From positions 1 through 35,517 of the forward strand of contig CAKKQA010000102.1 in assembly GCA_919901925.1 (NCBI GenBank): DNA of 35,517 nucleotides, in the 5' to 3' direction. Source of the DNA: Omnitrophica bacterium GWA2_41_15 (GTDB taxonomy: Bacteria; Omnitrophota; Gorgyraeia; Gygaellales; UBA12090). Shown piece by piece: positions 29,546 through 35,498 of the stretch (positions are counted from its first letter, which is position 1; each line of letters begins with the position of its first letter). A program made the position numbers and the translations under genes. The notes under the pieces are model-generated. The model was not told where the DNA came from. It did not search any database and saw only the letters and a program-made list of their open reading frames with translations.

Positions 29546-30481
29546 TTATTTTAAATATTCCTGAAACAACCAGGTTGATAAATATCTCTCGCCTGTGTCA
29601 GGCAGGATAACCACAATAAGTTTACCCGCGTTTTCCGGACGCTTCCCTACTTCCAAAGCCGCCCACATCGCCGCCCCTGAAGAAATACCGGCTAATATCC
29701 CCTCGTCTTTAGCCAGGCGCTTTGCAATCTCACCGGCATCTTCGTTAGAAACCTGAATTATTTCATCCACCAAATCCTTTTTATACACTTCGGGAACAAA
29801 CCCCGCTCCTATACCTTGAATCTTGTGCAGCCCCGGTTTACCTCCGGACAACACCGGCGAATCTTTAGGCTCAACAGCAATTGCTTTAAACGCAGGCTTT
29901 TTCTTTTTTAAAGCCTCGGAAATTCCGGTTATGGTCCCGCCGGTGCCTACCCCTGAAATCAATATATCAACTTTCCCGTCAGTATCATTCCATATTTCTT
30001 CGGCGGTTGTCCTGCGGTGAATATCGGGATTAGCTTCATTGCGAAATTGCTGGAGGATAAAACTTTTAGGATATTCTCTAGCCAGTTGTTCTGCTTTTTG
30101 CACCGCGCCGGTCATCCCCTTTACTCCTTCAGTAAGAACAACTTCCGCTCCAAAAATACGCAGAAGCGCACGCCTTTCCAAACTCATTGTGTCCGGCATA
30201 GTCAGAATCAACTTATATCCTTTTGCCGCGCAAACAAAAGCAAGAGCAATTCCAGTATTTCCCGAAGTCGGTTCAATAATAACCGTATCTTTGCCAATCT
30301 GTCCTTGGCGTTCTGCAGCCTCTATCATCGCCACGCCGATTCTGTCTTTGACGCTGGAAAGAGGATTGAAACTTTCCAACTTAACAACAATCTGCGCTTT
30401 TGAACCTTCAGATAGCCTGTTGATTTTTACCAAAGGCGTATTACCTACAGTCTTAGTTATATCGTCGTATATTTTTGCCAT
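29546..30481 (-). CDS. cysK: Cysteine synthase A
   Basis: [55 protein letters not shown]. Confidence 0.95.
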
Positions 30482-30758: not shown

Positions 30759-33700
30759 TTAATGTATTGATTTTGGCTCATTGGACAAACAAGAGATATT
30801 GATTAAGCTAAGCTTCAGTTCATCGGCGGTCTTTTCGGAATCAACCAATACCAGAATATCCCTCAATTCTGTATCGCCGGGCAAGTCTCGGTCCTCTTCT
30901 ATTCTCATAATATTGGCGATACAGCCTAAAATACTGTCCATCTGCTGGTCTAAGACGCCTCTCTGGCAAGAGGCAAACACGTATTCCTTAATGCGCTCGT
31001 TAGAGGGCGTAATCCCGGCGCTAAGCATCTTCTGAATCTCCTGCCATTCAGCGGCAAGGTTAAAAGTTTTTGTAGAAGCTGTACGTCTGTAGGGGCCGGA
31101 TTTATCCGGCCCGTTTGTTTCGGGCGCGATAAATCGCGCCCCTACATTTCGTGCCAAACCCGCCTGCGCCGCAATCGGCAAGGCGCGTAAATCGATTCCA
31201 CCTTTGTTATGTATTGGCGAAGAGGCCTGCGTCTCTTTAACCGCAGGCGGCGAGGCAGGGCCCTGCTCCAAAGTTTTTGAATCACCGATTATTTGAATCA
31301 GGCCGCCTGTGCGTTTAAATTTAAAAACAGGGCCTATTCGCGGGACAACAACTGAATCCTGTCTTTGTATAGTAACCGGAAGACTTGACGAATCTACAGC
31401 AGGAAGAATATGCTCTCTTAAGAAATTAATCCTGCCCCTAAGCCCATCTTTATCTAAAATCTTTTCATTGAGAAGCGCGGCAGTCAGGCTATCGCAGAAA
31501 TCTTCATCCGGATCGGAACTCGCATAACTAGATACAACCGCGCCGTCATTCTCATAATTACTTGTAGCTCCTCCTTTTAACTGCCTGGCTTTATTCAGAA
31601 AACGCCAGCCAAACTTTTCTGCCCAAGCGTTATGCAAACTATCTTTACCAATAACTATACCCGTAAGGCTGTGCGCTAGCTCATGTATGATTGTTCCATC
31701 AAGATTATTGATACCTTCCATTTCATGAAAATATAGAGGCCTAAAAGCATTAAGATACAAAGTTATTGCTTTACTCGAGCCTGCGCCATAGCCATTTAGT
31801 TTTTCGCCTGATTTAATGTTTACCTTATCATCGTTATCAATAAGAATATACCTTACGTTTTCTAAAGCCTTTCCATCAGCGATTACCGCAAATTTCCCCA
31901 AAGCATTAACAATACTCTTAAGTTCATCCCCTGTAAGAGCTTTATCCCTCCAGCTATATATATCTATAGCCCTATCGCCTATCTTTATCGTTATTTGCTC
32001 GCTAGGAACACCTTTCTGCCCATAATTATCCTGGAGCCACCAGTTTTTTCCCTTAAGCTCCCAATCTTCTATAAAATGCCTAATGTCTTCTATTGAACCA
32101 TCAGAGCCGTAATGGACCGCGATAGCCTCTTCATAACCCACATCGCCTTCGCGCAATTCTTGAAGCTTAATCTCCTCCATCTTTTGCATCGTCGGCGACG
32201 AGGCCGCTTCTTTTAAAAGCCAAGTAGGCGCTATTTCCCACTCTACTAACTTTTGAACAAACTCTTCTTTAACACCTTTTCTAAGACCTTCAAAATTTCT
32301 TATACGGCTAGTAATAAGCCTATCTATTTCGCATGCAAAAAATTCCGAAATCACATCCACACTATCCCTTCCAACAACTATTCCCAATCTTTTTAAAATA
32401 CCTTCCAATTGCTCTTTTTCGTTTATTTCAGCATACGCTCTAATCTTATCGCGTATACCTATCGGTAAATTATAATAAAAGTGATGGCCAAATTCGTGAG
32501 CAAAAGAGGTTGCCCCGCCAACTATACCTCCGAATGAAGGCAGATAAGCCCCTCCGACCCAAAATCTCCCGTCCATTATTTTTATATCTTTTGAAAAGCA
32601 TAAACCCGCTGAAAAAGCCGTTGTTAATAGCCATGCAAAATAATCAGAATGTTTTTCTAACCCATTGGCTATTCCTAAATTAAACGATTGTTCAAAAATA
32701 AAATGTGGTTTTTTGCCTTTGTCATCCTTATCTTTAATAGAAACCATTATACTGTTAATTTTTTCTATTAATTGCGGAAGGGCATAGCGAGATAAAAATT
32801 GGTCGTTAAATGGAAGGGCAGATAGATTAACAAAATAAATTCCTTCCCCACCCATCCCCCGTCCGAGATTATCATCGGCTACTCTGCCTCTGCGAGAATC
32901 TACGCCTGCTGTTGCTAACCAAATTTCTTTTATTGTATTTTTCTCTATTTTTAATAAAAATAACGGTTTATCTTTCCAACTTCTCCTTTCACCATATGAG
33001 CCTCCTTTTATTAAGGTGGGTTCCGTTGTATATGGTTGAACCAAAAGATACTCAACGCCCTTTCCGTCTTCTCCCTCTACAGCCTTCTCTACGGTAGCCA
33101 TAAAATAGTCATAGGTTAAATCTTTGCCTAAAAGATAAATCAATAATTCAGTTGCTTTTTTAACGTCTTGATCTCTAATTTTTACATATCCCTGAAGCCT
33201 CTGAACTGCTGATAAAGGCGATGAAGAGGCCGGATTCGCCATTTTTAAATCAGAAAGATTGAATTGTAATCCACGAGCACTGAATAATTCAATAATCTCC
33301 TCCTCGCTAAGACGCTCCCTGTTCTTTAGCTTTTTTAAAAGCTGATTATCAGCAGTAAGCGGCCTGGCAGGGATTAAAGCTCCCGAAGCGCTGCGTCTAA
33401 AAACTACCGGGACAATCTGAAATCCCATTGTATTCACATAAAAGCTTGCCGCGGGGCCAAAAGAATAATATTCCGGAAAATTGTTATACTTTAGGATTTC
33501 CCGCGCTCTTAGCGGTAACGGCAAACCGCTCCTTATCGCACTGATAAACCCGGAAGCCGCGGCATCCCAACCAGGCCGCCCGCCATAATAAGCCCTTGCG
33601 CGCTTTGCCAATTGATCCTCGCTGATAACTTGATCCGGAGGCACAAGCACTGTCTTTATATTTTTACCCTCGCCTTTCAATACAGACTTTAACTGCTCCA

Positions 33701-35498
33701 TCCTTTCCCGATAAATATCTCCCCAATATCCTGCCATACCGGCAGATTTCTCAAAACTCTGAAATCGCAATATTGCGTTTTCCTGCATTAAAGTAACAAT
33801 GCCATATCCGACAATTTCGTTTTGTCTGATAAATATTTCAATGTATCTATTATCACCCATTGGAAAAAGATGCCAGCCCAAGTCACTGATATTAGCGGAA
33901 GCGATCATATACGGGCCAATTTCATCCACGCCTTGAAAAGTAGAATTACGTTCTCTAAGCATAGACTTAAAATGTTCCACCATCGGATTAGAAGCCGGCG
34001 ACGAGGCCGCTGGCCCTGCCGGCGAGGATGCCCGTTCGGCACGCTGTGCTTGTTCAGGGCTTTCGCCCACCCCAGGCGCAACCAGTGCATGCGGCACGGC
34101 TTCCGAAACGAAACCCTTCCTGCATATATTTTTTATTTCTTCAAGTATACGCGCGCGTTCTTTGATACTATCGCGAATATCAGAAGGGATCATACCCTTT
34201 CCTGCATTACTTTCCACTCCAAAACTGTTTAGCGGTTTGCCATTAAACAAATAGTTTCTAACGTCTTCTGTAAAATATTCGTAATATATATTTACCATAC
34301 CAGTTATTCCTTTGGAACGCGTCTTAGGGCCGAACCGCTTGTAGACAAAATGTTCATAGTACCTATCTATATCTGGGCGTAATATTTTAAGCCTATCAGT
34401 AACAAGATGACATAACTCATGAGTAAATACTTCCTCCATATAATTAGATGCAACATCAGATACTTTTTCTCCTGAATAAGTGCCGTATGTATTACTGCCG
34501 TTTATATCACCTTCTTCTATAATAATTGTATCACCGCCTCTAACTGTTGATGGCATCTTATTACCTAAAACAAATTCTATACTTTTAACCAACAAAATGA
34601 GACGCGGATATCTTCTCTTAACCATAACTAACGTATCGTATAGCTGTCTAACGTATATCCTATAATTGGGAATGTTGTGAAGATTAACGATTTGCATCTG
34701 AGGAAAATCTCTATGAAGTTTTTCAATGTATTTTTCTGTATTTTTTTCCGCTGTACGCCTTATTGACGGCGTTGTTATAGTTTGCGAACCACTGTCTTTT
34801 GCAACTATAACATTGCTATGTTTCGGCAAATACATAACAGTATTTACAACAGCCAGCTGCATCCCTACGATACTTAACAATGAACCCAGTATTAAAATAA
34901 TAAATGATCTAGTTATTAAGGAAGTCCTTCCTGCCGCTTTAGCGACAACTAAACTAATGCCGGCTGTTCTAATGGTAGGATTTTGCGCCTTTCTGCTTAA
35001 ATCAATAGGCGATAATCCGCCACCTACAGGAGACTGTCCCAGCATATTGACATTTTCCTTTGTTGGGACCATCTCCGGAGGCAAACCTTTGACTAGCGAA
35101 GAGGCGCCTGCTTTTAGGCCTTCGGCTGGTAAAGAGGAAGGAGCAAACGCCTCTCCAAAGTTTATGTTTACATCATCCGGGTTAATCGGACTACTGCCAG
35201 TGACTTCAACAGCTAGATTAACAGGCGAGGAAGACGGATTATGATTGGCATCTCCCCATACGGCAGTTACGGGGCCGGCTTGGACCGGGCTTGAGGCTTT
35301 CGGAGTTGACCATTGAGGAATATTAAAATTCATCCCTCCGCTAAAGTAGCTTCTGATGCTTTGGCCAAAGGCGCTATAAATAGGTTGTTTGATGTTGTAT
35401 TCGCCGTTTTTGAAGGATTTCTGGTATTCGTTGAAGTAAGTTGTCTTTGACCACGGAGTTTTGGAAGTGAGGTTAGTGAGGTTTCTTGAATTGATCAA
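30759..35498 (-). CDS. Giant multidomain membrane/secreted protein with three HExxH zinc-metallopeptidase-like modules and SSP linkers
   Basis: HELCH (34407-34421), HEFGHH (32481-32498), HELAH (31671-31685); TM segment SFIILILGSLLSIVGMQLAVVNTVMY; linkers ASSP, SSSP, AASSP. TTG start with GGGAGG upstream. Confidence 0.75.
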   Translation of the reverse strand: MINSRNLTNLTSKTPWSKTTYFNEYQKSFKNGEYNIKQPIYSAFGQSIRSYFSGGMNFNIPQWSTPKASSPVQAGPVTAVWGDANHNPSSSPVNLAVEVTGSSPINPDDVNINFGEAFAPSSLPAEGLKAGASSLVKGLPPEMVPTKENVNMLGQSPVGGGLSPIDLSRKAQNPTIRTAGISLVVAKAAGRTSLITRSFIILILGSLLSIVGMQLAVVNTVMYLPKHSNVIVAKDSGSQTITTPSIRRTAEKNTEKYIEKLHRDFPQMQIVNLHNIPNYRIYVRQLYDTLVMVKRRYPRLILLVKSIEFVLGNKMPSTVRGGDTIIIEEGDINGSNTYGTYSGEKVSDVASNYMEEVFTHELCHLVTDRLKILRPDIDRYYEHFVYKRFGPKTRSKGITGMVNIYYEYFTEDVRNYLFNGKPLNSFGVESNAGKGMIPSDIRDSIKERARILEEIKNICRKGFVSEAVPHALVAPGVGESPEQAQRAERASSPAGPAASSPASNPMVEHFKSMLRERNSTFQGVDEIGPYMIASANISDLGWHLFPMGDNRYIEIFIRQNEIVGYGIVTLMQENAILRFQSFEKSAGMAGYWGDIYRERMEQLKSVLKGEGKNIKTVLVPPDQVISEDQLAKRARAYYGGRPGWDAAASGFISAIRSGLPLPLRAREILKYNNFPEYYSFGPAASFYVNTMGFQIVPVVFRRSASGALIPARPLTADNQLLKKLKNRERLSEEEIIELFSARGLQFNLSDLKMANPASSSPLSAVQRLQGYVKIRDQDVKKATELLIYLLGKDLTYDYFMATVEKAVEGEDGKGVEYLLVQPYTTEPTLIKGGSYGERRSWKDKPLFLLKIEKNTIKEIWLATAGVDSRRGRVADDNLGRGMGGEGIYFVNLSALPFNDQFLSRYALPQLIEKINSIMVSIKDKDDKGKKPHFIFEQSFNLGIANGLEKHSDYFAWLLTTAFSAGLCFSKDIKIMDGRFWVGGAYLPSFGGIVGGATSFAHEFGHHFYYNLPIGIRDKIRAYAEINEKEQLEGILKRLGIVVGRDSVDVISEFFACEIDRLITSRIRNFEGLRKGVKEEFVQKLVEWEIAPTWLLKEAASSPTMQKMEEIKLQELREGDVGYEEAIAVHYGSDGSIEDIRHFIEDWELKGKNWWLQDNYGQKGVPSEQITIKIGDRAIDIYSWRDKALTGDELKSIVNALGKFAVIADGKALENVRYILIDNDDKVNIKSGEKLNGYGAGSSKAITLYLNAFRPLYFHEMEGINNLDGTIIHELAHSLTGIVIGKDSLHNAWAEKFGWRFLNKARQLKGGATSNYENDGAVVSSYASSDPDEDFCDSLTAALLNEKILDKDGLRGRINFLREHILPAVDSSSLPVTIQRQDSVVVPRIGPVFKFKRTGGLIQIIGDSKTLEQGPASPPAVKETQASSPIHNKGGIDLRALPIAAQAGLARNVGARFIAPETNGPDKSGPYRRTASTKTFNLAAEWQEIQKMLSAGITPSNERIKEYVFASCQRGVLDQQMDSILGCIANIMRIEEDRDLPGDTELRDILVLVDSEKTADELKLSLINISCLSNEPKSIH
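31080..31146. repeat. Family B two-hairpin repeat inside the giant ORF, copy B5
   Basis: TGTACGTCTGTAGGGGCCGGATTTATCCGGCCCGTTTGTTTCGGGCGCGATAAATCGCGCCCCTACA, near-identical to 24048-24115. Confidence 0.93.

What the first reader, a model, noticed from the sequence alone, without database searches (positions are those of the whole stretch)
30759..35498. Giant protein with three distinct HExxH zinc-peptidase modules separated by SSP tokens
HELCH (with downstream EYFTED), HEFGHH (with downstream SEFFACE) and HELAH (with downstream SSDPDEDFCDSLTAALL) lie in one 1579-aa chain with an N-terminal region, a TM helix and linkers ASSPVQAG, SSSPVN, GSSPIN, PAASSPAS, PASSSPLS, EAASSPTM, QASSPIH. The tokens sit at module boundaries and recur in DNA as GGCGA-GAGGCC. 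Inference: a polyprotein-like secreted or surface protease array, possibly self-processed at the SSP tokens. Of everything here, this is the most plausible undescribed system.
Basis: partly seen in the sequence, partly recalled or inferred. Interest (0 to 1): 0.74.

Follow-up and report, generated by a model that had tools for sequence, protein, structure and literature searches.

The report
Capped modular exported proteins of Omnitrophota
The "giant protease" is one member of an apparently undescribed family of exported, mix-and-match proteins found throughout the uncultured bacterial phylum Omnitrophota, in which two fixed end pieces carry interchangeable enzyme modules joined by short signature words that differ between lineages.

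Summary
Observation largely confirmed. A minus-strand ORF (1579 aa) holds three HExxH motifs (0.02 expected), and all eight SSP tokens fall between homology-defined modules. But the ORF's start is an artefact: the window stops at a scaffold gap, and the gene continues upstream through a conserved ~330-aa N-terminal domain with a signal peptide. "N-cap", cargo and "C-cap" (GGIDFRALP plus a helical bundle) form a superfamily found in 136 of 384 Omnitrophota genomes, with roughly 57-70 copies in some. All 53 complete genes with both caps have the N-cap first and the C-cap last; neither cap matches Pfam, or PDB by sequence or fold. Cargo is shuffled and diverse: diverged glycolytic enzymes (PGK, TIM, aldolase, iPGM, enolase), GNATs, phosphatases, and zincin-like HExxH modules (23 vs 1.4 expected; uncapped ORFs at background). 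In the window, modules 2 and 3 keep HExxH and a third ligand in relatives; module 1 does not. SSP is 18-fold enriched in this genome's capped ORFs. A sister family uses D-x-A-M instead, and one module is followed by SSP, NSAM or AAPAGG in three lineages. Processing at tokens is plausible but unshown; processing in cis by the HExxH modules is unlikely, because proteins without HExxH carry the same tokens.

The parts
35325..35498 (-). C-terminal end of the N-cap (aa 1-58, LINSRNLTNLTSKTPWSKTTYFNEYQKSF...RSYFSGG). The rest of the N-cap and the signal peptide lie beyond the window, contig C102 35528-36741
   Evidence: BLAST to many unrelated giant ORFs; N-cap profile; upstream frame
34749..35324 (-). 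low-complexity linker with SSP tokens at aa 69, 90 and 102 and a hydrophobic helix (aa 194-220, 34839-34919)
   Evidence: sequence
34062..34748 (-). cargo module 1 (aa 251-479), zincin-like; HELCH at 34407-34421, FTED downstream
   Evidence: homologues L177 and L178; FTED kept, HExxH not kept in them
33996..34028 (-). two SSP tokens (aa 491, 499) between modules 1 and 2a
33264..33983 (-). cargo module 2a (aa 506-745), possibly GNAT-like (guess from sequence; no Pfam match)
   Evidence: 36% identical stretch in capped protein L175
33216..33224 (-). SSP token (aa 759)
32214..33206 (-). cargo module 2 (aa 765-1095), zincin; HEFGHH at 32481-32498, third-ligand Glu in SEFFACE (aa 1052, 32343-32345)
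   Evidence: stand-alone homologue L176 with signal-peptide-like start keeps HEFxHH and NEWFA
32193..32201 (-). SSP token (aa 1100)
31311..32186 (-). cargo module 3 (aa 1105-1396), zincin; HELAH at 31671-31685, acidic third-ligand candidates E1332/D1333
   Evidence: homologues L174 (stand-alone, signal-peptide-like start) and L047 (capped) keep HELxH and P-x-[ED]-D-x-x-[DE]-S; weak SprT/Peptidase_Mx hits
31215..31223 (-). SSP token (aa 1426) before the C-cap
30801..31202 (-). C-cap (aa 1433-1566): GGIDLRALP linear motif plus helical bundle
   Evidence: profile A2/A6 at the ends of capped ORFs; AF2 helices pLDDT ~94
31071..31148 (-). in-frame insertion of a dispersed palindromic (MITE-like) repeat inside the C-cap linker (VGARFIAPETNGPDKSGPYRR)
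   Evidence: recurs in short frames at C102:24021, C60, C168, C12 and in L042

Best explanation
The locus is one member of an Omnitrophota superfamily of exported modular proteins. A Sec signal peptide and a conserved N-cap take the chain out of the cytoplasm, and a C-terminal GGID motif with a lineage-specific C-cap marks its other end. Between the caps sit independently evolving, shuffled cargo modules that act outside the cytoplasm. Here they are one probably inactive and two probably active zinc-peptidase-like modules plus one module of unknown (perhaps GNAT-like) type. Short lineage-specific tokens (SSP here) join the modules as exposed joints, which are either flexible linkers or sites for a trans-acting processing peptidase. 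Shown: architecture, distribution, cargo diversity, token enrichment and placement, and conserved zinc ligands in modules 2 and 3. Inferred: export, extracytoplasmic action, catalytic activity, and the role of caps and tokens.
For: Caps shared by unrelated giant ORFs while cargo differs. 53 ORFs carry both caps in order; median N-capped ORF 1461 aa. N-cap in 136/384 phylum genomes, about 22 copies in G002, 57 in G141, 70 in G136. Signal-peptide-like start in every complete N-cap inspected. Both caps fold confidently in AF2, with no PDB sequence or fold match. Each window module has its own homologue elsewhere. HExxH 23 vs 1.4 expected in capped ORFs; 3 vs 5.1 in uncapped; permuted motifs 1 and 2. 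Token enrichment and placement.
Against: No experiment or proteomics. Most cargo has no Pfam match. Many cargo enzymes are cytosolic types with degraded active sites, so some modules may be inert. The window copy is interrupted in its N-cap by two TGA codons and a gap and may not be expressed as one chain. The signal peptide was judged by eye; no SignalP-type tool was available.
Confidence: 0.66

Rival explanations
1. Polyprotein: the tokens are recognition sites of a genome-encoded, trans-acting processing peptidase whose specificity differs by lineage (SSP, D-x-A-M, AAPAGG), so that each exported chain is cut into separate modules.
For: One token type dominates each genome and differs between lineages of the same superfamily: 60 SSP vs 2 SPS; 48 [DN].AM vs 0 [DN].MA. 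The same module is followed by SSP, NSAM or AAPAGG in three lineages. Asp codons of D-x-A-M are unbiased, so that motif is kept at protein level. Modules 2 and 3 exist elsewhere as single proteins with signal-peptide-like starts. Two intein/Hint domains sit beside AAPAGG tokens in L177.
Against: No cleavage evidence and no candidate peptidase identified. Many capped proteins of other genera have 0-2 SSP. SSP-type linkers are also common as plain flexible linkers.
Confidence: 0.3
2. The tokens are traces of DNA-level module shuffling: short repeated joints at which modules are recombined, with no function as peptides.
For: Strong codon homogeneity of SSP (second Ser TCG 42/60 vs 15% background, p 4e-24); the 12-mer GCCTCNTCGCCG occurs 54 times in the genome. 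Cargo modules occur at different positions in different proteins.
Against: Some SSP tokens use quite different Ser codons (AGC/AGT). D-x-A-M has a free second position and unbiased Asp codons. The joints are very short for homologous recombination.
Confidence: 0.25
3. A secreted protease array only: the three HExxH modules digest prey or host protein, and the rest of the architecture is incidental.
For: Three HExxH motifs in one chain; ligands conserved for modules 2 and 3.
Against: Module 1 ligands not conserved; a fourth module is not a zincin; 64 of 82 capped proteins have no HExxH; cargo in relatives includes glycolytic enzymes.
Confidence: 0.15
4. Decaying captured genes: the capped ORFs are a graveyard in which duplicated genes are trapped and drift, with little function.
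For: Cargo PGKs mostly sit on branches of 1-4.5 changes per site against 0.05-0.5 for the housekeeping copies, and some lost catalytic residues; repeats insert in frame.
Against: Frames stay open over 1000-5600 aa; caps are strongly conserved (58% mean column identity over 54 N-caps); tens of copies kept in 2-Mb genomes; zinc ligands kept in modules 2 and 3.
Confidence: 0.12

Closest known systems
Giant ORFs of Omnitrophota/Velamenicoccia (PMC10066038)
   Same: same phylum, very long ORFs, proposed role in interaction with other cells
   Different: that paper calls them poorly conserved with few annotated domains and mentions adhesin-type domains; conserved caps, lineage tokens, glycolytic and zincin cargo are not in the passages read or in other papers searched
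Polymorphic toxin systems (PMC3482391)
   Same: constant trafficking part plus variable, shuffled cargo, with processing domains in some systems
   Different: here constant parts flank the cargo on both sides, several modules per chain, cargo often metabolic-type enzymes; no immunity gene looked for
Polyvalent proteins of phages and conjugative elements (from memory; Pfam ART-PolyVal hit)
   Same: giant chains of unrelated enzymatic domains; one capped protein has a weak ART-PolyVal match
   Different: signal peptide, fixed caps, cellular genomes; only 2 relatives in 2.9 million viral contigs
Zincin metallopeptidases (SprT-like, Peptidase_Mx, WLM)
   Same: HExxH with an acidic third-ligand candidate in modules 2 and 3
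   Different: all Pfam matches are below the curated cut-offs
Bacterial intein-like/Hint domains (from memory)
   Same: inteins at module joints of a relative of module 1 (L177)
   Different: none in the window protein

Membership tests
Zincin metallopeptidase | HExxH motif | tested here: met
   three motifs, 0.02 expected
Zincin metallopeptidase | HExxH and acidic third ligand conserved in homologues | tested here: inconclusive
   met for modules 2 (HEFxHH...E) and 3 (HELxH...[ED]D), not met for module 1 (HEVSL, YKAAH); only 1-2 relatives each
Zincin metallopeptidase | match to a curated family above cut-off | tested here: not met
   best hits SprT-like E 0.01, Peptidase_Mx 0.03, WLM 0.027, all below cut-off
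Zincin metallopeptidase | zinc binding and proteolysis | not testable with these tools
   needs biochemistry
Omnitrophota capped-protein superfamily (defined here) | signal peptide and N-cap at the start | tested here: met
   N-cap profile hits C102:35331-36732 in pieces; interrupted by a repeat with 2 TGA and a gap
Omnitrophota capped-protein superfamily (defined here) | C-cap with GGID motif at the end | tested here: met
   C102:30792-31211, E 1.7e-49; GG[IVL]D in the last 220 aa of 52/53 capped vs 5/555 uncapped ORFs
Polymorphic toxin system | toxin domain at the C-terminus after a trafficking domain | tested here: not met
   the C-terminus is a constant cap, cargo is internal
Polymorphic toxin system | adjacent immunity gene | not tested
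   neighbouring genes not examined for this
Self-processing polyprotein | boundary motif between independent modules | tested here: met
   8/8 tokens outside modules covering 71%
Self-processing polyprotein | in-cis protease responsible for cuts | tested here: not met
   7 of 8 other capped ORF fragments of this genome carry 3-11 tokens and no HExxH; this speaks against an HExxH protease in cis, not against every protease
Self-processing polyprotein | cleavage at the motif | not testable with these tools
   needs proteomics or an in vitro assay

The most novel reading that the evidence does not exclude
Omnitrophota make exported polyproteins: chains of unrelated enzyme modules, including diverged glycolytic enzymes and zinc peptidases, framed by two caps known from nowhere else, and cut apart outside the cytoplasm at a lineage-specific peptide token by a co-evolving peptidase.
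Probability: 0.25. Interest if true: 0.93.

Novelty: new variant of a known kind. Interest (0 to 1): 0.78.

Why it matters
In the two richest genomes examined, roughly 8-9% of the sequence (my estimate from copy number and frame length) goes into one family whose caps Pfam, NCBIfam and PDB do not recognise, in a phylum thought to prey on or parasitise other cells. The caps and tokens give a handle (profiles, motifs) for cataloguing this protein set, and they make the question of what Omnitrophota giant proteins do testable. A boundary peptide that is uniform within a genome yet switches between lineages would be a new sort of processing or joining signal.

Tried and rejected
PDB sequence search of the cargo: nothing. 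Foldseek of both caps: best E 0.28 and 1.5, meaningless. Cargo PGK as the genome's only copy (relocated glycolysis): rejected; nearly all genomes also have an ordinary ~395-aa PGK. Tokens as simple composition: rejected by SPS/PSS controls. Viral origin: only 2 viral-collection relatives of the N-cap. HExxH modules as the token-cutting enzymes in cis: rejected as a general explanation. A structure job for the HExxH modules was not run: both jobs went to the caps, and too few eligible homologues exist for a useful alignment. Literature searches for the caps or tokens found nothing.

Full report
Observation. The feature is on the minus strand of the window: 30759-35498 is an open frame of 1579 aa. 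Three HExxH motifs are present against 0.02 expected. In this genome's capped ORFs, SSP occurs 60 times in 12,348 aa against 2 SPS and 5 PSS; consensus [A/V/G]-S-S-P-[V/A/I/L]. Giant ORFs filling further contigs (C77, C145, C172, C185, C189 and others) hold 106 more, 6.3 expected. At DNA level GCCTCNTCGCCG occurs 54 times in the genome and its reversed control never.

The ORF is truncated. The window ends at a 10-N scaffold gap (contig C102 35518-35527). The same gene continues upstream with a signal-peptide-like start (MPQKPIKIIALVLCFFLIFEQSGISQ) and a conserved ~330-aa domain, here interrupted by dispersed palindromic repeats, one of which brings two in-frame TGA codons. Whether this copy is expressed as one chain is therefore open.

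Caps. BLAST of the ORF against its own genome and 40 relatives returned almost only its two ends, from ORFs of roughly 100 to 5600 aa, plus one hit to the third HExxH module and some short hits to the inserted repeat. From these I built an N-cap profile (A1, later A5 with 54 sequences) and a C-cap profile (A2, later A6 with 50). A scan of 85,462 genomes gave 206 N-cap-encoding stretches; the 79 loci kept are nearly all titled Omnitrophota. Among 384 genomes of the phylum 136 have the N-cap; single genomes hold roughly 57-70. In the 79 loci, 53 ORFs carry both caps, always in that order and at the ends. N-capped ORFs without a C-cap are mostly cut by contig ends or followed by a C-capped ORF; L085 is a clear exception. 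AlphaFold gives confident models for both (N-cap pLDDT 84, C-cap helices about 94). Neither matches Pfam, NCBIfam, PDB sequences or PDB folds.

Cargo. Between the caps only 30 of 1378 cargo pairs share similarity, often at different positions, so modules are shuffled. Pfam finds PGK, iPGM, TIM, GAPDH, enolase, fructose-bisphosphate aldolase, PPDK, PGM, GNAT, calcineurin-type phosphatases, PP2C, FHA, TPR, HEAT and more. PGK was examined: genomes keep an ordinary ~395-aa enzyme, and the copies in giant ORFs are extra, long-branched, partly degraded, and in G175 and G228 circularly permuted. HExxH is a recurrent cargo signature: 23 in 82 capped ORFs against 1.4 expected, permuted controls 1 and 2, and 3 against 5.1 in 555 uncapped ORFs.

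The window's modules. Each has its own homologue. Module 1 (aa 251-479) lost HExxH in both relatives but kept FTED. Module 2 (765-1095) keeps HEFxHH and a downstream Glu in L176. Module 3 (1105-1396) keeps HELxH and P-x-[ED]-D in L174 and L047. L174 and L176 are single ORFs with signal-peptide-like starts, so these modules probably work alone and outside the cytoplasm in other lineages (judged by eye). Module 2a (506-745) is matched in the capped L175; its GNAT-like label is a guess.

Tokens. All eight SSP lie outside homology-defined modules that cover 71% of the chain, p about 5e-5 if independent (two pairs of tokens lie close together, so the true value is weaker). In a sister family (genome G141) the most enriched motif in an unbiased count is D-x-A-M: 38 against 1.6; [DN].AM 48 against [DN].MA 0. 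It sits after the N-cap and before the GGID motif, which is all that its C-cap visibly shares with this one. Module 1 is followed by SSP in the window, by NSAM in L178 and by AAPAGG in L177, where two intein/Hint domains sit beside the tokens. The SSP codons are strongly uniform (TCG 42/60), which suggests copying of DNA joints; the Asp codons of D-x-A-M are not, which suggests selection on the peptide. I cannot choose between processing site, linker and recombination joint.

Mechanism. Most likely an exported modular chain whose caps handle transport or assembly and whose modules act outside the cytoplasm. Export, activity and cap function are inferred; architecture, distribution, enrichment and ligand conservation are shown.

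Comparison with what is known. The Omnitrophota genome paper (PMC10066038) describes giant ORFs as poorly conserved with few annotated domains. Polymorphic toxins (PMC3482391, abstract) share the constant-plus-variable logic but not the double caps or internal cargo. No paper found describes these caps or tokens; the library lacks most subscription journals and bioRxiv.

Noticed in passing
L182-L198 (giant ORFs of G004, G010, G186 and others) and L181 (G022): Extra, diverged phosphoglycerate kinases lie inside giant ORFs, several of them demonstrably capped, alongside an ordinary housekeeping PGK; in G175 and G228 the domain is circularly permuted (profile 285-392 precedes 13-286).
   Followed up: partly
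cargo of L059-L137, L209-L228 and L046: Most of glycolysis (PGI, aldolase I and II, TIM, GAPDH, PGK, iPGM, enolase, PPDK) appears as cargo in signal-peptide-bearing capped proteins; why is unexplained.
   Followed up: partly
L177 (G122:C26), about aa 375-670 and 940-1395 of the 1531-aa ORF: Two intein/Hint domains (PF14890, E 2e-46) sit next to AAPAGG module-boundary tokens.
   Followed up: partly
L201, L202, L204, L206, L207 (own-genome contigs C77, C145, C172, C185, C189): Long open frames (up to 5915 aa) without detectable caps carry most of 106 further SSP tokens, often as GCC TCC TCG CCG; possibly pieces of one or a few still larger proteins.
   Followed up: partly
window 31071-31148; C102 35764-35844; C102:24021-24116; C60; C168; C12: A dispersed palindromic MITE-like repeat (GTAGGGGC...GCCCCTAC type) inserts in frame into capped genes and is translated (VGARFIAPETNGPDKSGPYRR).
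   Followed up: partly
C102 about 36150-36200, just outside the window: Another palindromic repeat brings two in-frame TGA codons into the N-cap of the window gene; this copy may be broken or mis-assembled.
   Followed up: partly
L084 (JAGVGM010000297.1): A contig titled Thermodesulfovibrionia carries a typical capped gene; probably a binning or labelling error.
   Followed up: no
window 29546-30481 (-): The neighbouring gene, on the same strand, looks like cysteine synthase (by eye), so the capped gene sits among ordinary housekeeping genes.
   Followed up: no
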